Shown: positions 372 through 10,918 of the stretch, in pieces
How positions within the stretch are numbered: position 1 is the first letter of the stretch
Layout: every line of letters begins with the position of its first letter
Origin: Anaerolineae bacterium
Lineage (GTDB): Bacteria; Chloroflexota; Anaerolineae; Aggregatilineales; Phototrophicaceae
NCBI GenBank assembly: GCA_030950085.1
Contig: JAUZRW010000218.1
Span: 1-47,086, forward strand
DNA length: 47,086 nucleotides
Direction: 5' to 3'
Translations under genes and position numbers: made by a program
The notes under the pieces: generated by a model
The model's input: only the letters and a program-made list of their open reading frames with translations
What the model was told of the DNA's origin: nothing
The model's database searches: none

Positions 372-1832
372 ATGACTCTTCATAATACAGAGCAAAGTAC
401 CCATACAGAAGCATCTGCAATGCCACAGATTCACAGTGATATTTTGGGAACAATGGGGCAAACTCCCCTCGTTCGGCTGAATCGCATCACACACGGGATT
501 CGTTGCCAGATGGTGGCAAAGGTCGAATATTTCAATCCCGGTGGGTCTGTCAAAGACCGTATCGGCATTACCATTATTGAAGATGCCGAGCGCAAAGGTT
601 TACTTAAGCCCGGCGGTACGATTGTCGAGGCGACATCCGGCAATACAGGTGTCGGATTAGCGATTGCCGCTATTTTGCGTGGGTATAAATGTGTCTTTGT
701 CATGCCCGACAAAATGTCTGATGAAAAAATCCGTGTTTTGCGTGCCTATGGCGCACGGGTCGTTGTCACCCCTACCAATGTTGAGCCGGATGACCCACGC
801 AGTTACTATAAAGTTTCCGAACGCATCGTCAGCGAAACTTCCAATAGCATCCTTGCCAATCAATATCATAATCCTGTAAATCCCCTCACCCATGAAGCAA
901 GCACGGGACCCGAAATCTGGGAACAAACGGCTGGTCAGATAGATGTCTTTGTCGCAGGTATCGGTACAGGTGGCACGATTACAGGTGTCGGGCGCTATCT
1001 CAAGAAAATGAATCCGAAAATTCAGATTGTTGCTGTAGACCCTGTGGGTTCAATTGTTCATGACCACTTTTATACGGGCAAAATGACTGACGCGGAATCT
1101 TATAAGACAGAAGGTATCGGCGAAGATTTTATCCCTTCCAACTATGATTACAATGTGATTGATGACATGGTAAGGGTGAGCGACAAAGAAACGATGTTGA
1201 TGACTCGCCGCCTGGTGCGTGAAGAAGGTATTTTCGCAGGCAATTCGAGTGGCGCGGCATTGGCAGGCGCTTTACATTATGCCGCAGAGCGTGACCTCGC
1301 GCCGGATAAATTGATGGTTGTCTTACTGCCGGATAATGGCTCGCGCTATCTAAGCAAGGTATTTGATGATAACTGGATGCGTGAAAATCAGTTCTTGGGG
1401 ACGGATTGGTCAGATACGACGGTGAGTACAGTGATGGAGCGCAAAACTCGTAAGGGACTCATCACGGCGAATGCGAAAGAACCTGTCGCCGATGTTATCG
1501 CCAAGATGAAGGCTAACGATGTCTCGCAAATGCCTGTTCTCGGTGAACGCGACCAATTACGGGGACTTGTGACAGAAGTTGGATTGTTGAGTTACTTGCT
1601 CAATAACGCTGGCAGCGATTCGGCATCAACGCCAGTTGAAGAAGCGGGCGTTATCGACACGAGTGTTCCCAATTTGAGTCCCGGCACCCCGATTGAAACG
1701 ATGATGAGCATTTTCTCTACTCATGCCATCGCCCTTGTGACAGAACGGATGGGAGAAAATCAAGACCAGCGTGTTGTCGGTATTCTGACGAAAATTGACT
1801 TGCTAGACTTCCTCTCGAACCGCAACACATAA
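372..1832 (+). CDS. cbs: Cystathionine beta-synthase
   Basis: PLP enzyme that condenses serine (or O-acetylserine) with homocysteine to cystathionine, the first step of transsulfuration to cysteine. The 486-residue protein has the fold-type II catalytic domain at about residues 20-340. The PLP lysine is K61 in NPGGSVKDRIG, followed by the substrate loop EATSGNTGVGLA and the phosphate-binding GTGGTITGVG. Two CBS repeats follow at about 350-485, giving the length and order of full-length CBS rather than the shorter cysteine synthase CysK. ATG 372 has an AGGAAA-like site that is rather distant; ATG 420 is an alternative without a better site. It is convergent with the cystathionine gamma-lyase/synthase gene, the next pathway enzyme. 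A cysteine synthase with regulatory CBS domains is the main alternative. Confidence 0.88.
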   Translation: MTLHNTEQSTHTEASAMPQIHSDILGTMGQTPLVRLNRITHGIRCQMVAKVEYFNPGGSVKDRIGITIIEDAERKGLLKPGGTIVEATSGNTGVGLAIAAILRGYKCVFVMPDKMSDEKIRVLRAYGARVVVTPTNVEPDDPRSYYKVSERIVSETSNSILANQYHNPVNPLTHEASTGPEIWEQTAGQIDVFVAGIGTGGTITGVGRYLKKMNPKIQIVAVDPVGSIVHDHFYTGKMTDAESYKTEGIGEDFIPSNYDYNVIDDMVRVSDKETMLMTRRLVREEGIFAGNSSGAALAGALHYAAERDLAPDKLMVVLLPDNGSRYLSKVFDDNWMRENQFLGTDWSDTTVSTVMERKTRKGLITANAKEPVADVIAKMKANDVSQMPVLGERDQLRGLVTEVGLLSYLLNNAGSDSASTPVEEAGVIDTSVPNLSPGTPIETMMSIFSTHAIALVTERMGENQDQRVVGILTKIDLLDFLSNRNT

Positions 1833-1843
1833 AATCATCGAAT

Positions 1844-1873
1844 AATGGGACGTGATACGTTACGTCCCATTTT
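1844..1873 (+). terminator. Rho-independent terminator after cbs
   Basis: Perfect 10-bp inverted repeat (AATGGGACGT at 1844-1853 with ACGTCCCATT at 1862-1871), 8-base loop, ending in TTTT. It starts 11 bases past the cbs stop codon, between two convergent genes. Confidence 0.75.
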
Positions 1874-1904
1874 CACCCAACACAAAATGACGAATAGCCC
1901 ACTA

Positions 1905-3047
1905 TTAGTCGTTGTGCAATGCTTGGCGCAAATCATTGATGAGGTCATCGACATTTTCGATACCCACGCTGAGACGCACCAATGCTGGGTCTACCGCAAT
2001 ATCGGTGTCAGCAGTGCTGGCATGAGTCATACTATAAGGATGCTCAATCAGGCTTTCGACACCACCGAGACTTTCTGCCAATGCGAATAACTTTGTGCGT
2101 GTGACCATCGTTTTGGCGATTGCTTCACTCTTGAGGATGATACTCACCATGCCGCCAAATAATTTCATCTGACGTTTAGCGAGTTCATGCTGTGGATGAC
2201 TTTCTAATCCCGGATAGTAAACTTTCACAATTTCGGGATGGTCTTCTAGCATTTGGGCAATTTTCATAGCATTTTCGCTGTGACGCTCCATCCGAACGCC
2301 AAGCGTTTTGATACCGCGCATCACGAGAAAACAATCCATCGGACCCGGCACTGCTCCGGCAGCATTTTGCAAGAATTTTAGTTCGGTATAAAGCGATTCG
2401 TCTTTCATAGCCAGTAAGCCACCGACAGCATCACTATGACCGTTGAGGTATTTGGTGCTGCTGTGCATGACAATATCCGCACCCATCGTTAGCGGCTGTT
2501 GGATATAGGGACTAGCGAACGTGTTATCGACACCCACCAAAACATCTTGTGGCGCAGATTCGGCAAGGGCAGCAATATCACCTAATGCCAGCAATGGGTT
2601 TGTCGGTGTTTCGAGCCATAGGAGACGTGTATTAGGCTTAAATGCTGCTTTTACGGCTTCTAGGTCGCTTTGGTCAATCCAGCTAAATTCGAGACCATAA
2701 CGCTGATAAATCTTATCAAACAGGCGGAATGTGCCGCCGTAAACATCGTTACCCACAATTACATGGTCGCCCGGTTTCAGCAAGCGCACAATGGTATCAA
2801 TGGCGGCTAATCCACTAGAGAATGCGAGACCATATTGCCCACCTTCAATTGCGGCAACATTCGCTTCTAATGCCGCACGAGTCGGGTTTCCACTGCGGCT
2901 ATACTCATAACCTTTGTGCTGATTTGGGGCTTCCTGAACAAAGGTTGATGACTGAAAAATCGGGGTCATGATAGCACCCGTTGCAGGGTCGGGTTCTTGT
3001 CCAGCATGAATCGCTAATGTATCTATGTGATAGTCTTGTTCGCTCAC
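1905..3047 (-). CDS. Cystathionine gamma-lyase / gamma-synthase family PLP enzyme
   Basis: Cys/Met-metabolism PLP enzyme of 380 residues, the usual length. The Schiff-base lysine is K199 in MHSSTKYLNGHSD. The cofactor-binding YSRSGNPTRAALE, the GDHVIVGNDVYGGT segment and the C-terminal VRLSVGIENVDDLI are intact. It starts at GTG 3047 with GAGGA 7 bases upstream. Placed tail to tail with cystathionine beta-synthase, it most likely acts as cystathionine gamma-lyase, cleaving cystathionine to cysteine, 2-oxobutyrate and ammonia. Gamma-synthase or methionine gamma-lyase activity cannot be excluded from sequence alone. The two genes together give a complete reverse transsulfuration route from homocysteine to cysteine. 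Confidence 0.88.
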   Translation of the reverse strand: MSEQDYHIDTLAIHAGQEPDPATGAIMTPIFQSSTFVQEAPNQHKGYEYSRSGNPTRAALEANVAAIEGGQYGLAFSSGLAAIDTIVRLLKPGDHVIVGNDVYGGTFRLFDKIYQRYGLEFSWIDQSDLEAVKAAFKPNTRLLWLETPTNPLLALGDIAALAESAPQDVLVGVDNTFASPYIQQPLTMGADIVMHSSTKYLNGHSDAVGGLLAMKDESLYTELKFLQNAAGAVPGPMDCFLVMRGIKTLGVRMERHSENAMKIAQMLEDHPEIVKVYYPGLESHPQHELAKRQMKLFGGMVSIILKSEAIAKTMVTRTKLFALAESLGGVESLIEHPYSMTHASTADTDIAVDPALVRLSVGIENVDDLINDLRQALHND

Positions 3048-4529: not shown

Positions 4530-6569
4530 ATGACTCACGAAGATAATCCAATCGACGATACTATCACTTGGGAAGCAGCACGCGCACTTGTGGGAGACAT
4601 GCTCCGTCCTGATGGTCACGATGGCGAAACAGCCATGCAACAAACCATTGCCCGTAGTTATACGGTCAATCGCGCTCGGCATCGCCTTAAGTTAAACAAA
4701 GGCACGATTGACCAAGCCATTAAAGACGGGGTAATCAGTACATTTATAGACCCCGATAGCAACCAACGTATTCCAGCACAAACAATAGAAAGCGCCCTCA
4801 ACAATAGCGAATTATTTGAGAAAATTGCTGAGACAGAACGCATCAAACCGCGTGAGATTGCTGATGCTATGGGTGTCAAAACAGCCACAGCACGCAAACG
4901 ATTACGACGCGGCAAAGTAGACCCGAACAAGCTAATATGGGGGCAGATACGCGGACGCTTTAACCTGCCCGATACTTTGCGCGGATTTCATAAATTGGTT
5001 GCGGATAATAGAGAGGCACGGCGGCGCGAACAACGTGAAAAACGCGAAACAAGCCGTCAGCGCAAACGTGAGAAAAAAGAAATCGAACGTCGTCGTAGAG
5101 CCGAATTACGCGCTCGGCTGGTCGCCAGTTTTCCGGCATGGTCGGAGTTAGACCGTTCGCATCAAATGATGATGTTACATATTGGCCCCCCCAATAGTGG
5201 TAAGACACATGACGCTCTCAATCGTTTGGCAGAAGCCGGCAGTGGTTGGTATCTTGCCCCATTACGCCTCCTCGCATGGGAAGTCTTTGACCGCCTGAAT
5301 CAACGAGGGGCAAAGTGCAACCTGCTCACAGGTGAAGAATTTATCGCCGTAGAAGGTGCAGAGATTACGGCTGCTACAATCGAGATGTTTAACCCAAATC
5401 AGCACGGGGAAGTCGTTATTATCGACGAGGCACAAATGTTAGCCGATGCTGATAGAGGGTGGGCATGGACACGCGCTATGATGAGTTCACTTGCGGCGGA
5501 AATGCACGTTATCGCCCCCGAAACGGCACAAAATCTCATCCAGAAGATGGCAGAAGCCGCGAATATTCCCATGGGAACGGTTTTCCATGAACGCCTGACT
5601 CCTATCAAAGTCGCTGCTAAACATTGGAATCTGGAAAATATTCCACCGAAAACTATTTTAGTCGCTTTTTCGCGCAAGATGGTTTTGGAACTCAAAACAC
5701 GCTTGGAAGCAATGGGACGTGACGTATCGGTTGTATACGGTAGTTTGCCACCCGAAGTTCGTCGTAAACAAGCTGAACGTTTTGCAGCCGGTGAGACAGA
5801 TGTTTGTGTTGCGACAGATGCAGTGGGAATGGGACTCAACCTCCCTGCGGATTGTGTGTGTTTCTACGATGTCGAAAAATTTGATGGGCGTGATATGCGT
5901 CTACTCAAACCGGCTGAAGTGCAACAAATTGGCGGACGGGCTGGGCGCTATGGTTTCTCTCATGCCGGAGAAGTGGGCGCAATTCGTCGTGAAGATTTGA
6001 AGCTCGTTAAGCGGCTATTTTATGACACGCCGAAAGAATTGACTCATGCACGTGTCGCCCCCACAGTTGATGATTTGGCACTGATTCCGGGTAGTTTAGC
6101 AGAAAAACTCGGCGAATGGTCACAATTGCAATCTATTCCGAAAGACTTACGTAGTTCTGTAAAAACGGCAGATATGGCAGAGCGCATCCAATTAGCGAAT
6201 ATGCTCTCCGACTATCAGGTGGCAGAACTTGGACTGACGAATGCTGTGCAATTGGTCAATGCCCCGACACGCAAGAGTACCCGTGAGTTCTGGTATGATT
6301 GTGCCATTGCTATTATTGACCGTGCGCCTATGCCACTCCCACCTGCCCCATCAGACGAGGTTCTCGACACCGGTGATTTAGATTATGCGGAAATGTGTAT
6401 AGCGTGTGCTGACATTTATTTGTGGTTGTCATATCGACGTGAGTTTGCTGAATTTGCTGAACATCAAAAGCTGATTCGTGAGGAGCGACAAGATTGGTCT
6501 AGTCGCATTGATTCTGCGCTTCTGAGCAAAATCAAAACGAATTATATCCGCAATTTTGACAGTCGCTAA
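4530..6569 (+). CDS. SUV3-like DExH RNA helicase with N-terminal HTH region
   Basis: 679-residue superfamily 2 helicase. It has Walker A GPPNSGKT (219-226), motif II DEAQ (299-302), the SUV3-typical YGSLPPEVRRKQAERF, motif V VATDAVGMGLNL and motif VI QQIGGRAGRYG. The spacing and wording of these motifs match Suv3, the RNA helicase of the mitochondrial degradosome, rather than common bacterial DEAD-box proteins. Ahead of the core lie two helix-turn-helix-like segments (about 40-70 and 105-130, the latter KPREIADAMGVKTATARKRL) and a very basic charged helix (about 163-197). A role in 3'-to-5' RNA unwinding for decay or processing is inferred. The gene is monocistronic by context, divergent from the MFS gene and convergent with the amidohydrolase gene. 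Confidence 0.82.
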   Translation: MTHEDNPIDDTITWEAARALVGDMLRPDGHDGETAMQQTIARSYTVNRARHRLKLNKGTIDQAIKDGVISTFIDPDSNQRIPAQTIESALNNSELFEKIAETERIKPREIADAMGVKTATARKRLRRGKVDPNKLIWGQIRGRFNLPDTLRGFHKLVADNREARRREQREKRETSRQRKREKKEIERRRRAELRARLVASFPAWSELDRSHQMMMLHIGPPNSGKTHDALNRLAEAGSGWYLAPLRLLAWEVFDRLNQRGAKCNLLTGEEFIAVEGAEITAATIEMFNPNQHGEVVIIDEAQMLADADRGWAWTRAMMSSLAAEMHVIAPETAQNLIQKMAEAANIPMGTVFHERLTPIKVAAKHWNLENIPPKTILVAFSRKMVLELKTRLEAMGRDVSVVYGSLPPEVRRKQAERFAAGETDVCVATDAVGMGLNLPADCVCFYDVEKFDGRDMRLLKPAEVQQIGGRAGRYGFSHAGEVGAIRREDLKLVKRLFYDTPKELTHARVAPTVDDLALIPGSLAEKLGEWSQLQSIPKDLRSSVKTADMAERIQLANMLSDYQVAELGLTNAVQLVNAPTRKSTREFWYDCAIAIIDRAPMPLPPAPSDEVLDTGDLDYAEMCIACADIYLWLSYRREFAEFAEHQKLIREERQDWSSRIDSALLSKIKTNYIRNFDSR

Positions 6570-6574
6570 AAATT

Positions 6575-6601
6575 AAAAAGGGCGACTACAATCAGCCGCC
6601 C
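6575..6601 (-). terminator. Terminator after the amidohydrolase-CYTH gene
   Basis: Inverted repeat GGGCGACT (6580-6587) / AGCCGCCC (6594-6601) with one mismatch and a 6-base loop. On the minus strand it is followed by TTTTTAATTTTT. It lies between two convergent genes. Confidence 0.65.
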
Positions 6602-6630: not shown

Positions 6631-8613
6631 TTAGGACTGGAGCGCCATTTCCAGATAATCTTTGCGCTCAACTTTACTGACATCAATCTCCAGAATATCC
6701 ATCATCTCATGGACGAAGTTTGCTTTATTTTCGGCATCTGTCTTTGACCATGTGCGCGTCTTGATTTCGATATACATATCCGATAGTTCGGGCTTAATTA
6801 CACGGTCTATATTGATAAAGAATAGCACCCCTTTGTACAACATACGCCAGCGTCGGCGGTCTTTTTGGAGTTTGCGCTGTTCACTGACTTGGAAATACTC
6901 TTCATAGAAGCGCAAGGGATGACTTGCTGGTGCAATGAAGCGTGAATGAGATAGCACAACCGCATCATTAAAGACACGTTCTTTTTCGGCTGATGTATAT
7001 GTCAAGCGCATCCGTACTGACTCAACATTCCCCTCAAGGTCAATCCGGTCATCCTCACGATAGCGAATTCTGCCCTTATCTTGTTCATCGAATATGAAAT
7101 ACGTATCATATTGGCGATAATGCACTGCCCGTAAGACCTCTGAATCTTTGTGACTGAGTAATTCCTCAATAACGGACGGGTCTTCGATTTTAGCCTTCAC
7201 CTGAATCTCGAAACTCTCTGCCCGTTCAACACCAACACCCACAGCTACCAACTTACGAAGCGGATTTTCTTCGACTTCGCCCAAGAATTTACCCACTCGT
7301 TCGGCATAAGAAGCCGCTTCTTCTTTCAGTGCTGTTTCATCAATCGTTAGCAGGTCACGGTCACGCATGAGTATCTTACCGTGGCAAATCGTATGCTGCA
7401 CATCGCTACTTTTGGCAGAATAGACAATTTGTGAGTACGGCGCATCGGGATTGACATCAAAGCGTGGAACATTGTGTAGTGGATGGGCATTAACCACCAC
7501 CACATCTGCAAATTTACCGACTTCTAAGCTACCTGTCACATCGCCTAATCCTAATGCACGCGCCCCGTTGACTGTCGCCATCTGTAAAGCCTGTTTTGCG
7601 GGCAGTGCCGTTGGGTTATTGGGGGTGACTTTTGCAAGTAAAGCTGCTAGTCGCATTTCCTCAAACATATCAAGGTCATTATTACTGGCAGGTCCATCTG
7701 TTCCAATGGCTACATTGAGACCCATCTCTAACATTTGAGAAATCGGCGCAATTCCACTAGCGAGTTTCAAGTTTGCAGAGGGACAATGAGCGACTGACGC
7801 ACCATATTTTTTGAGCATCCGCATTTCATGTTCATCAATATGAACACAGTGGGCAGCGATAATCGGTACATCTAGCACGCCTTGGTCTTTGACCCATGGC
7901 ACAACGGTTTTATCATACTGATTCATACTATCTTCGACTTCACGCGCCGTTTCTGCAATGTGAATCATCATCGGGAAGCCATATTCTTTCGCCAATTCGA
8001 CACTGCGCTTGAGTGTTTCTTCGGTATTAGAATAGGGGGCATGAGGCGCAATCGACGGCGTAATCAGTGGATGGTCTTTCCACTGCTCGATAAATTCGCG
8101 TGTATAGTCCAGACTTTCTTCGTAGGTCGCAGCATCGGGTGTCGGGTACTTTAGAATCGACTCGCCCAAAAATGCACGCAAACCAGCATCAACCGTTGCT
8201 TGTGCAATGTCGGATTCAAAGTAGTACATATCGGAAAATGCGGTCACACCACCGCGAATCATTTCCGCACAGGCTAAAGTCGTTCCGAGTTTCACGAACT
8301 CTGGGCTGACAAATTCACGCTCGACTGGCATGATATAGCCCATGAGCCAAACATCGAGGCGCAAGTCATCTGCCATTGCCCTCAACAGTGTCATTGGCAC
8401 ATGGGTATGGGCATTGACCAAACCCGGCATAATATAATGTCCGCTACAATCAATGGTATCAGATGATTCGTATTGTTTTTCGAGTTCGGTACATGACCCA
8501 ACAGCGACCAGTTTGGTATTAGAAATCACGACCATGCCATCATGAATGATATCAAAATTGTCATTCATGGTGATAATCGTGCCACCTTTAAGGATAATGT
8601 CTGCTTTTTTCAA
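6631..8613 (-). CDS. Amidohydrolase (SAH/MTA deaminase-like) fused to a CYTH-like domain
   Basis: 660 residues, about 200 longer than usual for this family. Residues 1-430 are a metal-dependent amidohydrolase of the TRZ/ATZ/SsnA/MtaD group: metal ligands H69 and H71 (NAHTHVPMT), H218 (MIHIAET), H255 (AAHCVHIDEHE) and D306 (IGTDGPASNNDLDM). The family deaminates S-adenosylhomocysteine, methylthioadenosine or related purines and triazines. Residues about 465-655 look like a CYTH (class IV adenylate cyclase/triphosphate tunnel) fold. The visible marks are an E469-x-Q-x-K473 opening, YDTYF, IRYRED (515-520), RMRLTYT, NIDRV and YIEIK (E616, K618). It starts at TTG 8613 behind AAGGGG; no ATG nearby fits better. 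The deaminase call is firm at family level, not for substrate. The CYTH call rests on motif order. Confidence 0.8.
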   Translation of the reverse strand: MKKADIILKGGTIITMNDNFDIIHDGMVVISNTKLVAVGSCTELEKQYESSDTIDCSGHYIMPGLVNAHTHVPMTLLRAMADDLRLDVWLMGYIMPVEREFVSPEFVKLGTTLACAEMIRGGVTAFSDMYYFESDIAQATVDAGLRAFLGESILKYPTPDAATYEESLDYTREFIEQWKDHPLITPSIAPHAPYSNTEETLKRSVELAKEYGFPMMIHIAETAREVEDSMNQYDKTVVPWVKDQGVLDVPIIAAHCVHIDEHEMRMLKKYGASVAHCPSANLKLASGIAPISQMLEMGLNVAIGTDGPASNNDLDMFEEMRLAALLAKVTPNNPTALPAKQALQMATVNGARALGLGDVTGSLEVGKFADVVVVNAHPLHNVPRFDVNPDAPYSQIVYSAKSSDVQHTICHGKILMRDRDLLTIDETALKEEAASYAERVGKFLGEVEENPLRKLVAVGVGVERAESFEIQVKAKIEDPSVIEELLSHKDSEVLRAVHYRQYDTYFIFDEQDKGRIRYREDDRIDLEGNVESVRMRLTYTSAEKERVFNDAVVLSHSRFIAPASHPLRFYEEYFQVSEQRKLQKDRRRWRMLYKGVLFFINIDRVIKPELSDMYIEIKTRTWSKTDAENKANFVHEMMDILEIDVSKVERKDYLEMALQS

Positions 8614-8710
8614 ACCAATTCCCCTTTTTATGTTGGCAAATTTGCGCGATTATAGCGGTAATGTATGATTTGTGCAGACCGACTTAGCAAAATTTCGATG
8701 CGGAGCAAGC

Positions 8711-10918
8711 ATGATTAAACGTTTTCAGACCACTATCCAGCCTATTTTACACTTCCTTGAAGCAGGATTAATGGGACTGTTTTTTGTACAAGCGATGCGA
8801 ATGTTAGTTGGCGACTTGTATTCACATATCCAGAGTGCCAGTCTATTTGATAGTTACACCCTGCGCGAGATTGAATTTGATACGTCTGTATCGGGTGTCA
8901 TTCTGCCGAGTACGGTCAGCAACGAGATTATCTTACTAGGTGTCATGCTGGCACTCCCTGTATTATTGCTCTTATTAGGGCGCGTGCGTTTTATGTTCAT
9001 TGTGGCAGTCGGCTTAGGGGCATTTGGACGTGCGGCAATGACCATCCCCGACACAGGTATTTCGAGTACGATGGGCGCAATATTGGCTGTCGGTGGCGGA
9101 TTAATATACATTCTGCTTTTAGTCAGCCAGCGAGCAACAAAATTTCCGTACTTTTTTATTCTTGGCTTTGCTGCTGACCAGATGATACGAGCATTTGGCA
9201 GTACATCCGACCCAACTTGGACTTCGCAATTTGCCAATCCACAACTGGCTTTGTCGGTAACAGTTGTCGTGCTGGCCTTAATTAACACATTCCGAAAACC
9301 TCAAATTGAACGTAGCCAACTGAGTGATGGTACACGGATTGACCTCAATAAAGGCAAATTGACCATATGGGGGGCAATCGGCTTGGGTGGATTATTATTC
9401 TTAGAATTTTCGTTACTCGCATTGCCGAATACCATTATGGGACGTAGCGGTACAGAACTTTACACGGTATTCGTGCCGCTTGTACTGGCTGCCACCTTAC
9501 TACCTCTGATTCCGACGGTGCGCTCTCAAGCTCGCCAACTCATTGCCCCATTTGCCCCCAACACACGCGGTTGGATATGGTTGATTTTCATGGCACTATT
9601 GCTCGTTTTCGGGACGCGACTCACACAAATTACGATTGCAATTAGTGGTGGTGCAGCCGTGACTCCTATTGGTGGTATTTTACTGGGAATATGTCAATTT
9701 GCAGCGTCCATGATTTGGTGGTGGTTTGTTCGACCTAAAACTGAAAACGAACATAATTTCGGCGGTTTGTGGCTTGTATTATCTATGCTGATATTTGCCT
9801 TATTCGTCGGGGTAGATATTTTTACTTATGATTATGCCTTCGTACAGCAACTCGCAGCACCATTAGATAGATTGAACAATGTTATTCCGCCGCTATTGCG
9901 TGGATTACGGGGTATGGGACTGGCGTTAATTTTGTTCGCGGCATTCTTATCCACACTGCCGATGATTCAATCGACTCGCCGCATTCCGTGGTCGGGCGCA
10001 AAACCTATTATTTCGTTGATTGTGCTGGTTATCGTCGCTGTCGCCACTGCTGGCAGTTATCGTCTATCGCTTCCGCCGCAGGTACTACCCGTTGTCAATG
10101 TCGATAGGATTCGAGTGGGTACATGGAATATTCATGGCGGATACAGTGAGTTTTTCGCCTATAGTTTGGAAGATGTCGCTGTCACAATATATGAAAGTGG
10201 CGCAGATGTTGTCTTATTGCAAGAGGTGGAAGCAGGGCGCTTAACGAGTTATGGGGTTGACCAATCGTTGTGGCTTGCACGGCGCATCAGTGCGATTGCC
10301 ATTAGTCAGGGCGATAATCGCGGCATGGACAAACGCTTTTTTGCAGCAAATGAAGGGTTACAGGGTTTAGCTGTTTTATCGAGAGTACCGATTGCTTTTG
10401 ATGATGGCGAATTGCTCAATAGCATCGAATCTGAAACAGGGCGCTTTATTGGACAACAAACAGCCTTACAACGGGTGCAAATTATCCCCGACAATGGACC
10501 CGTGACGATTTACAATACATCATTGGGGGTGTTGCTACAAAGTTCAGAACAATCCGTACAAGAAAATAATCAGGAACAACAACTCAGCCAAATTTTAGAT
10601 ATTATTGCACGGCATGTCGAAGATGATTATGGACAGCAGTTAGGGCGTGCCTTACTCGGTGGCACATTCAACAATGTACCGAGTTCGCCTCTAATTCAAC
10701 GCATGTATGATACGCCATTTATTGACCCATTCGCTGGTACGAATCTGACATTATCGGCAACCTTACGACGCGCCAACTTACCACCTGCACGCTATGATTA
10801 CTTGTGGTTATGGTCTCAAACATTGCAACCATCCGGTACAAATGTGATGAATGATAGACCTGCCCATGCTGCCTCTGACCATCGTTTGGCAGTTGTGGAA
10901 ATCATTATTCGACAATAG
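8711..10918 (+). CDS. Polytopic membrane protein with C-terminal endonuclease/exonuclease/phosphatase domain
   Basis: 735-residue protein. About thirteen hydrophobic segments cover roughly residues 15-455, for example IILLGVMLALPVLLLLLGRV and WIWLIFMALLLVFGTRL. An EEP-superfamily domain follows from about 465 to the end: TWNIHGG (catalytic Asn), LLQEVEAGR (metal-binding Glu) and the terminal SDHRLAVVEI (catalytic Asp-His pair). The EEP fold cleaves phosphodiesters in nucleic acids, inositol lipids or sphingomyelin; here it should sit at the membrane surface. ATG 8711 is chosen because GGAG lies 5 bases upstream; an in-frame GTG at 8672 lacks such a site. The gene is divergent from the amidohydrolase gene. 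A role in phospholipid or nucleotide hydrolysis is inference only. Confidence 0.78.
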   Translation: MIKRFQTTIQPILHFLEAGLMGLFFVQAMRMLVGDLYSHIQSASLFDSYTLREIEFDTSVSGVILPSTVSNEIILLGVMLALPVLLLLLGRVRFMFIVAVGLGAFGRAAMTIPDTGISSTMGAILAVGGGLIYILLLVSQRATKFPYFFILGFAADQMIRAFGSTSDPTWTSQFANPQLALSVTVVVLALINTFRKPQIERSQLSDGTRIDLNKGKLTIWGAIGLGGLLFLEFSLLALPNTIMGRSGTELYTVFVPLVLAATLLPLIPTVRSQARQLIAPFAPNTRGWIWLIFMALLLVFGTRLTQITIAISGGAAVTPIGGILLGICQFAASMIWWWFVRPKTENEHNFGGLWLVLSMLIFALFVGVDIFTYDYAFVQQLAAPLDRLNNVIPPLLRGLRGMGLALILFAAFLSTLPMIQSTRRIPWSGAKPIISLIVLVIVAVATAGSYRLSLPPQVLPVVNVDRIRVGTWNIHGGYSEFFAYSLEDVAVTIYESGADVVLLQEVEAGRLTSYGVDQSLWLARRISAIAISQGDNRGMDKRFFAANEGLQGLAVLSRVPIAFDDGELLNSIESETGRFIGQQTALQRVQIIPDNGPVTIYNTSLGVLLQSSEQSVQENNQEQQLSQILDIIARHVEDDYGQQLGRALLGGTFNNVPSSPLIQRMYDTPFIDPFAGTNLTLSATLRRANLPPARYDYLWLWSQTLQPSGTNVMNDRPAHAASDHRLAVVEIIIRQ

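What the first reader, a model, noticed from the sequence alone, without database searches (positions are those of the whole stretch)
6631..8613. SAH/MTA-deaminase-like amidohydrolase fused to a CYTH-like domain
Seen: a complete metal amidohydrolase (H69, H71, H218, H255, D306) runs without a break into about 190 residues with CYTH-type marks: an E-x-Q-x-K opening at 469-473, IRYRED, RLTYT, NIDRV and YIEIK. Known: CYTH proteins bind triphosphates (ATP, thiamine triphosphate, polyphosphate) in a tunnel of charged residues. Inference: nucleotide deamination and triphosphate binding or hydrolysis are coupled in one enzyme, perhaps linking the methionine/SAM cycle to a cyclic or triphosphorylated nucleotide. 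I do not recall this fusion being described.
Basis: partly seen in the sequence, partly recalled or inferred. Interest (0 to 1): 0.62.

Follow-up and report, generated by a model that had tools for sequence, protein, structure and literature searches.

The report
Nucleoside deaminase fused to CYTH-type tunnel
A strongly conserved protein of Chloroflexota bacteria joins an enzyme that probably deaminates adenosine-like leftovers of the SAM cycle to a triphosphate-tunnel domain whose usual metal-binding residues are swapped for others, which suggests that the tunnel binds a phosphate-rich ligand rather than cutting it.

Summary
The fusion is real. The gene lies on the minus strand (6631-8613, TTG start, 660 aa). 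Residues 60-415 are an amidohydrolase of the MTA/SAH/5'-deoxyadenosine deaminase type with its metal site intact. Residues about 468-660 fold as a CYTH/TTM tunnel (AF2 pLDDT 85; SaTTM, Foldseek E 1.7e-8; PH1819, Z 17.3). Pfam's CYTH model recognises this stretch in relatives, though not in the window's own copy. The tail is found in 118 of 399 Chloroflexota genomes (67 of 77 in the window's class). Fused deaminases form one clade, and the two halves diverge in step (r = 0.88). Unexpected: the tunnel is not canonical. Hallmark ExExK is ExQxK in 175 of 175 tails and the later ExE is ExK in 177 of 177, while phosphate-binding RxR and KxR and the site-1 Glu are invariant. Stand-alone CYTH proteins of the relatives keep ExExK and ExE (30 of 30 read). 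The catalytic second-metal site is probably lost and much of the binding site kept: most likely a non-hydrolytic triphosphate or polyphosphate sensor attached to a deaminase. Most relatives also carry SAHH, MTAP and ADA-family enzymes, so this is not the only route for SAH, MTA or adenosine. Substrate, ligand and coupling are untested. My full-text searches found no description.

The parts
6631..8613 (-). whole gene: 660-aa fusion protein, TTG start at 8613, stop at 6631-6633
   Evidence: fused frame in the 37 loci examined
7369..8436 (-). amidohydrolase domain, residues 60-415 (Amidohydro_1); metal ligands H69, H71, H218, H255, D306
   Evidence: 2e-78; these five residues in 173 of 173 N-domains; nearest solved sequences 4f0r, 4dzh
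6634..7212 (-). CYTH/TTM-type tunnel domain, residues about 468-660
   Evidence: Pfam CYTH in relatives; model; fold match
7195..7209 (-). E469-x-Q471-x-K473 on the first strand (ExExK in canonical CYTH)
   Evidence: E 175/175, Q 175/175, K 176/176
7051..7065 (-). R517-x-R519-E520-D521, phosphate-binding RxR strand
   Evidence: R517 177/177, R519 177/177, E520 177/177, D521 176/177
6850..6864 (-). K584-x-R586-x-R588, phosphate-binding KxR strand
   Evidence: each 177/177
6760..6768 (-). E616-x-K618 on the last long strand (ExE in canonical CYTH): site-1 Glu kept, site-2 Glu replaced by Lys
   Evidence: each 177/177
8649..8676 (-). promoter-like site TGCACA-16-TATAAT, 10 of 12 matches
   Evidence: pattern only; 8 found, 5.0 expected in the region
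6580..6601 (-). terminator-like hairpin just after the stop codon
   Evidence: pattern only; 3 found, 2.0 expected

Best explanation
A metal-dependent nucleoside deaminase carrying a ligand-binding tunnel. The N-terminal barrel deaminates a 5'-substituted adenosine (MTA, SAH, 5'-deoxyadenosine or the like) to the inosine form. The C-terminal CYTH/TTM tunnel binds a triphosphate-bearing or polyphosphate ligand through invariant R517, R519, K584, R586, K473 and one metal at the E616 site. It does not hydrolyse the ligand, because the second, water-activating metal site is dismantled (Q471 and K618 in place of two glutamates, both invariant). Occupancy of the tunnel most likely tunes the deaminase or places it where SAM-derived nucleosides arise. 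Shown here: fusion, predicted fold, conservation, one clade, invariant residue swaps. Inferred from published TTM structures: loss of metal site 2 and retention of phosphate binding. Inferred only: the substrate, the ligand, absence of hydrolysis, and regulation.
For: N-domain: PF01979 2e-78; best solved relative is named an MTA/SAH deaminase (4f0r, 8.1e-100); metal ligands, E98 and E221 173 of 173; of five unfused relatives inspected, three lie beside mtnA, purine-nucleoside phosphorylase or luxS, one does not (87) and one record stretch has no annotation (83). Tunnel: Pfam CYTH in relatives; AF2 pLDDT 85.4; Foldseek 7ns9 E 1.7e-8; 2een_A Z 17.3, rmsd 2.4 over 169, 3n0z Z 16.3, 7ns9 Z 16.2. 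Invariant or nearly invariant charges sit at i, i+2, i+4 of predicted strands (469/471/473, 517/519/521, 584/586/588, 616/618/620), as expected of one face of each strand. Swaps: Q471 175/175 and K618 177/177 against ExExK and ExE in 30 of 30 stand-alone CYTH loci read among the relatives (28, of which 26 ExE by script and 2 by eye; the two that my filter had dropped were read). PMC4641920 (passages): Glu-4, Glu-6 and Glu-162 of YgiF hold metal 2, Glu-160 holds metal 1; changing Glu-6 or Glu-160 impairs activity; Vtc4p keeps only site 1. One unit: r = 0.88 between N-domain and tail identities over 172 proteins, 0 of 999 permutations; one clade, support 100/99, in a tree with 40 fused and 27 unfused rows.
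Against: No biochemistry exists. Class IV cyclases also lack the second Glu of ExE and are active (PMC8233210), and Vtc4p works with one metal site, so lost site-2 residues do not prove lack of catalysis. W622, D626 and the RED motif are as invariant as a catalytic site would be. The usual triphosphate-binding Lys of the LTYK strand is T/I/L/M/V here (178 of 178), which weakens a simple 'binding site kept' claim. The residue mapping rests on sequence alignment and motif order; the profile comparison is weak (probability 29.6) and one search has gap artefacts near KxR and ExE; model coordinates could not be inspected. The full-length model is poor (pLDDT 63.4), so nothing is known of the domain interface.
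Confidence: 0.45

Rival explanations
1. Bifunctional enzyme: the tunnel is catalytic by a non-canonical one-metal or Lys-assisted mechanism (triphosphatase, pyrophosphatase or nucleotide hydrolase), and supplies or removes a product linked to the deaminase reaction.
For: Charged residues as invariant as an active site over 175-178 tails; Arabidopsis TTM1/2 lack ExExK and ExE yet pyrophosphatase activity is reported for TTM2 (PMC8233210); class IV cyclases lack the second Glu and work.
Against: Q471 and K618 replace two metal-2 ligands in every copy that covers them; changing the Q471 equivalent in YgiF or AtTTM3 impairs activity (PMC4641920).
Confidence: 0.22
2. The tunnel is a structural or protein/RNA-binding module, as the TTM-like fold in Mediator is, used for dimerisation or docking, with no small-molecule ligand.
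For: Mediator chains are among the fold matches (Med18/20 entry 2hzm Z 11.9; other Mediator entries up to Z 13.0).
Against: Invariant tunnel-type charges are not expected if only the outer surface matters; the nearest matches are CYTH proteins, triphosphatases and cyclases, Z 16-17.
Confidence: 0.17
3. VTC-like phosphotransferase or polyphosphate polymerase: Lys in the ExK position and a single metal site as in yeast Vtc4p, making or extending polyphosphate.
For: In Vtc4p the acidic-patch positions are basic and only metal site 1 is present (PMC4641920); K618 falls at one of these positions; a Vtc4/Vtc3/Vtc1 chain is matched, Z 9.0.
Against: No VTC family among the 16 Pfam families matched by 37 tails at E <= 10 (weak matches can be filtered out there); E469 keeps an acidic residue where Vtc4p is basic.
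Confidence: 0.06
4. Class IV adenylyl cyclase-like activity that couples the deaminase to cAMP.
For: Class IV cyclases 3n0z and 2fjt are close fold matches, Z 16.3 and 16.2; the second Glu of ExE is missing, as in cyclases.
Against: No HF motif before the first Glu: residue 463 is E, Q or (once) H and residue 464 R, Q or A in 37; R517 is kept, where cyclases have a small residue (PMC8233210).
Confidence: 0.02

Closest known systems
CYTH family PF01928: SaTTM, PH1819, YgiF, class IV adenylyl cyclase
   Same: Tunnel fold, order of motifs, RxR, KxR, Asp on the LD strand, first Glu of ExE, first Glu and Lys of ExExK; Pfam's own model recognises some relatives' tails over cut-off
   Different: ExQxK in place of ExExK and ExK in place of ExE in every copy covering them; LTYK Lys lost; longer stretch between the LTY and KxR strands in the alignment; fused behind an amidohydrolase instead of alone or joined to CHAD or a kinase (PMC8233210)
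MTA/SAH deaminases (4f0r; TM0936, 1p1m) and 5'-deoxyadenosine deaminase DadD
   Same: Similarity along the whole N-domain, same metal ligands, E98 and E221 conserved
   Different: Scores below the curated NCBIfam cut-offs (486.4 against 540; 371 against 522; 290.4 against 779); extra tunnel of about 190 residues; own conserved residues D87, V88, G92, E133, D160, H181, Y393, shared by at most a third of 15 unfused relatives
Yeast Vtc4p polyphosphate polymerase tunnel
   Same: Metal site 1 only and a basic residue at an acidic-patch position (PMC4641920)
   Different: Weaker fold match (8i6v_D Z 9.0), no Pfam VTC match, no SPX or membrane domain found
Arabidopsis TTM1/TTM2 (phosphoribulokinase-type domain + TTM)
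   Same: TTM domain lacking the ExExK and ExE hallmarks, joined to another nucleotide enzyme (PMC8233210; fold match 7z67 Z 15.0)
   Different: Partner is a kinase-type domain; described from plants and amoebae only; has the W/YxRxR motif, which this tail lacks

Membership tests
CYTH (PF01928) | triphosphate-tunnel fold | tested here: met
   predicted model
CYTH (PF01928) | sequence match over Pfam's cut-off | tested here: inconclusive
   window copy: no match; relatives: 13 fused frames over cut-off, 3 below, in 61 genomes
CYTH (PF01928) | ExExK hallmark (not strict: cluster 7 members lack it) | tested here: not met
   ExQxK in 175 of 175; stand-alone CYTH of the relatives ExExK in 30 of 30 loci read
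CYTH (PF01928), active TTM/ThTPase | ExE on the last strand (metals 1 and 2) | tested here: not met
   ExK in 177 of 177
CYTH (PF01928) | RxR and KxR phosphate-binding pairs | tested here: met
   177 of 177 each
thiamine triphosphatase | W/YxRxR | tested here: not met
   window has R515; over the family R in 158 of 177, W in 2, Y in 3
class IV adenylyl cyclase | HFxxxxExExK and loss of the first Arg of RxR | tested here: not met
   criteria from PMC8233210 section 9
MTA/SAH deaminase (amidohydrolase superfamily) | amidohydrolase metal site and similarity along the whole domain | tested here: met
MTA/SAH or 5'-deoxyadenosine deaminase, NCBIfam equivalogs | score over the curated cut-off | tested here: not met
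   NF006549 486.4/540, NF005557 371/522, NF012037 290.4/779
MTA/SAH deaminase (amidohydrolase superfamily) | deaminates MTA/SAH/5'-dAdo | not testable with these tools
   needs enzyme assay
VTC polyphosphate polymerase | Pfam VTC match; polyP synthesis | tested here: inconclusive
   no VTC among the 16 families matched by 37 tails; fold match Z 9.0; activity not testable

The most novel reading that the evidence does not exclude
A separate subclass of triphosphate-tunnel domains, marked by ExQxK / RxRED / KxRxR / ExKxRTWSxxDA, that has given up its catalytic second metal site to become a sensor of a triphosphate or polyphosphate and controls a SAM-cycle nucleoside deaminase: an allosteric link between phosphate or energy status and clearance of SAM-derived nucleosides, present early enough to be shared by the Anaerolineae-type and the Roseiflexaceae/Oscillochloris-type lineages of Chloroflexota (vertical descent is inferred, transfer not excluded).
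Probability: 0.35. Interest if true: 0.72.

Novelty: new variant of a known kind. Interest (0 to 1): 0.52.

Why it matters
The physiological function of CYTH proteins 'has largely remained elusive' (PMC8233210, section 9). Here one is tied, almost always in single copy and with invariant tunnel residues, to an enzyme whose chemistry can be assayed. That makes the question of what a TTM tunnel senses or does in a cell directly testable: titrate triphosphate ligands against deaminase activity. It also warns against annotating the tail as a triphosphatase or cyclase, and against naming the whole protein merely an SAH/MTA deaminase.

Tried and rejected
Canonical CYTH hydrolase: rejected as best reading because ExQxK and ExK are invariant. 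Class IV cyclase and ThTPase: motifs absent. Replacement of SAHH by the S-inosylhomocysteine route of Methanocaldococcus and Thermotoga: not supported; SAHH is over cut-off in 34 of 37 genomes and the 30 copies laid as loci all carry HxTxE, the SAH-preferring motif of PMC10978960 (passages), none HxExK (one search was a first script whose filter missed 28 of 30). MTAP over cut-off in 34 of 37; MTA/SAH nucleosidase over cut-off in 2 of 37, at E <= 0.001 in 10; ADA family PF00962 over cut-off in 34 of 37 (that family holds other deaminases too). Five of these 37 genomes lack the tail (G001, G016, G017, G019, G050). Gene context: 20 neighbourhoods fetched besides the window, in one (L113) my ORF caller missed the fusion gene. 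The divergent membrane gene lies beside it in the window and six others, five of the window's family and one of its order; CoaE follows in two and a CinA-like gene precedes in two (two genes upstream in a third); no neighbour runs through the set. Profile comparison with 28 stand-alone CYTH: in register, but only probability 29.6, E 5.7e-4. phmmer of the tail and a profile of 37 tails against PDB sequences: 0 matches. Viral contigs: none. Plasmid collection: 1320 records with a match, none covering 80% of the protein. Genome-contig scan with exact peptides of the window tail: 7 loci, all titled as Chloroflexota or families of it; this reaches close relatives only, so restriction to Chloroflexota is not shown. 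Full-length fold: pLDDT 63.4, not used. A CYTH frame other than the fusion is found in 58 of 61 genomes, so the fusion does not replace it. Families absent from the list are not excluded by it. Corrected on recheck: I had taken a short fused frame (L079, G193) for a broken gene; it is cut by the contig end.

Papers: PMC8233210 outline, sections 4 and 7, and section 9 part 1 of 2; PMC4641920, PMC9911596 and PMC10978960 passages only; all others as search listings. Literature searches for the fusion: (open-licence PMC only); none of the listings describes it.

Full report
What is there. The frame 6631-8613 is a 660-residue protein on the minus strand with a TTG start, an AGGGG stretch about 7 nt upstream, and promoter-like and terminator-like sites on either side (weak by count). 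The nearest neighbours on both sides are on the opposite strand, so it looks like a single-gene unit.

N-terminal half. Amidohydro_1 covers residues 60-415 (2e-78). The closest solved sequences are an MTA/SAH deaminase, 4f0r, and related amidohydrolases. NCBIfam's best models are TRZ/ATZ hydrolase, N-ethylammeline chlorohydrolase and 5'-deoxyadenosine deaminase; these scores lie below the curated cut-offs. H69, H71, H218, H255, D306, E98 and E221 are identical in 173 of 173 N-domains. Five unfused relatives from plasmid records were inspected: one lies beside mtnA, one between purine-nucleoside phosphorylase and mtnA, one beside luxS with a phosphorylase next to that; one shows no such neighbour and one stretch has no annotation. 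This points to adenosine-type nucleosides of the SAM cycle but fixes no substrate.

C-terminal half. The window's own tail matches no Pfam family, yet 22 of 37 homologous tails match CYTH, best 4.9e-7, and a CYTH search of 61 genomes rings in 16 fused frames, 13 over Pfam's cut-off, two of them only with the whole frame scored. AlphaFold2 on 8 sequences gave pLDDT 85.4. Foldseek's best match is the Sulfolobus TTM with triphosphate (E 1.7e-8, TM 0.73 by target); VIA-align gives Z 17.3 (PH1819), 16.3 (class IV cyclase), 16.2 (SaTTM), 13.1 (YgiF). The tunnel fold is therefore well supported, as a prediction.

How old and how wide. Tail matches occur in 53 of 61 genomes of the near relatives' set, the window's own included, and in 118 of 399 Chloroflexota genomes asked for at >= 90% completeness: 67 of 77 in the window's class by my count of the listing and 51 of the other 322, the latter in five families only. 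I read 178 tails: 53 from the relatives, 118 from the phylum set (G318 and G405 twice each) and 7 from genome contigs, some of which repeat G genomes (L042 and L081, L044 and L186 have contigs of equal length). Of these, 172 lie in frames of 600 aa or more, and the six shorter frames are all cut by a contig end. In a tree of 67 deaminases, the 40 fused ones (a sample of the 172) form one clade (100/99) needing one change; some unfused rows have long branches. Identities of N-domains and of tails are correlated (r = 0.88, 172 proteins, 14,706 pairs, 0 of 999 permutations). In 27 genomes where the tail had not been found, the best deaminase match is 29-40% identical in 21, absent in 4, 63% in G024, where the gene is cut by a contig end, and 46% in G417, an unfused relative outside the fused clade.

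The unexpected point. Invariant in every tail that covers the position: E469, Q471, K473, D503, R517, R519, E520, R568, F569, E572, K584, R586, R588, D603, E616, K618, W622, D626 (175-178 sequences). In published TTM structures the two Glu of ExExK and the second Glu of ExE hold metal 2, which activates the attacking water, while the first Glu of ExE holds metal 1 and the Arg/Lys pairs hold the triphosphate (PMC4641920 passages; PMC8233210 sections 7 and 9; in SaTTM the Glu at the Q471 position touches metal 1 as well). YgiF E4, E6, K8, R56, K69, E160 and E162 were checked in its sequence. By motif order and alignment, E469/Q471/K473 stand for ExExK, R517/R519 for RxR, K584/R586 for KxR and E616/K618 for ExE. 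Thus the first-metal Glu and the phosphate grips are kept, but two metal-2 ligands are Gln and Lys throughout. Stand-alone CYTH proteins of the relatives keep both ExExK and ExE in 30 of 30 loci read, out of 58 genomes with such a frame (the two loci that my motif filter dropped were read). Against the simple picture, the LTYK lysine is lost in all 178 fused tails.

Mechanism. I judge a non-hydrolytic, ligand-binding tunnel on a nucleoside deaminase most likely (0.45). That the tunnel binds phosphate, and that this affects the deaminase, is inference. Rivals are non-canonical catalysis (0.22), a structural or docking module (0.17), a VTC-like polymerase (0.06) and a cyclase (0.02). Pathway context in 37 genomes, 32 of them with the tail: SAHH over cut-off in 34 with the SAH-type HxTxE motif in 30 of 30 copies read, MTAP in 34, ADA-family proteins in 34, MTA/SAH nucleosidase in 2. 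The deaminase is therefore not the sole outlet for SAH, MTA or adenosine in most of them, which leaves 5'-deoxyadenosine, or a regulated side route, as the more attractive role; this is inference.

Known or new. The SaTTM paper's network of 38,246 CYTH sequences names CHAD and phosphoribulokinase as partners in the multidomain clusters among its ten largest (PMC8233210 section 4). My full-text searches for CYTH or TTM with amidohydrolase, deaminase, Anaerolineae or Chloroflexi listed no paper on this fusion (open-licence papers only). Each half belongs to a known superfamily; the combination and the altered tunnel are, as far as I could check, new. Novelty: new variant of a known kind.

Noticed in passing
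window 8672-10918: Protein with a C-terminal endonuclease/exonuclease/phosphatase domain (PF03372) and a long part that reads as membrane helices, divergent from the fusion gene and beside it in the window and six of the other neighbourhoods.
   Followed up: partly
window 4530-6569: Suv3-type DEXQ-box helicase (PF22527, 5.9e-50) next to the fusion gene on the other strand; relatives of it lie near the fusion gene in L106 and L109.
   Followed up: no
window 372-3047: Two genes that read like transsulfuration enzymes (cystathionine beta-synthase and gamma-lyase/synthase type; label from reading, no search run) within about 8 kb of the fusion gene.
   Followed up: no
G064: One 2.7 Mb Chloroflexota genome has 32 matches to this deaminase, against at most 10 in the other 26 genomes of that search.
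   Followed up: no
G025, G419, G080, G326, G070: Five fused copies are listed with one stop codon inside the tail match; their frames still reach 600 aa or more, so it may be the natural stop overrun by the match.
   Followed up: no
L252 / L127 (G417): Unfused deaminase 46% identical to the N-domain, ending without a tunnel; the nearest unfused relative found inside the class.
   Followed up: partly
P0001 residues 87, 88, 92, 133, 160, 181, 393: D, V, G, E, D, H, Y in at least 172 of 173 fused deaminases but in at most a third of 15 unfused ones; may mark a different substrate or the domain interface.
   Followed up: no
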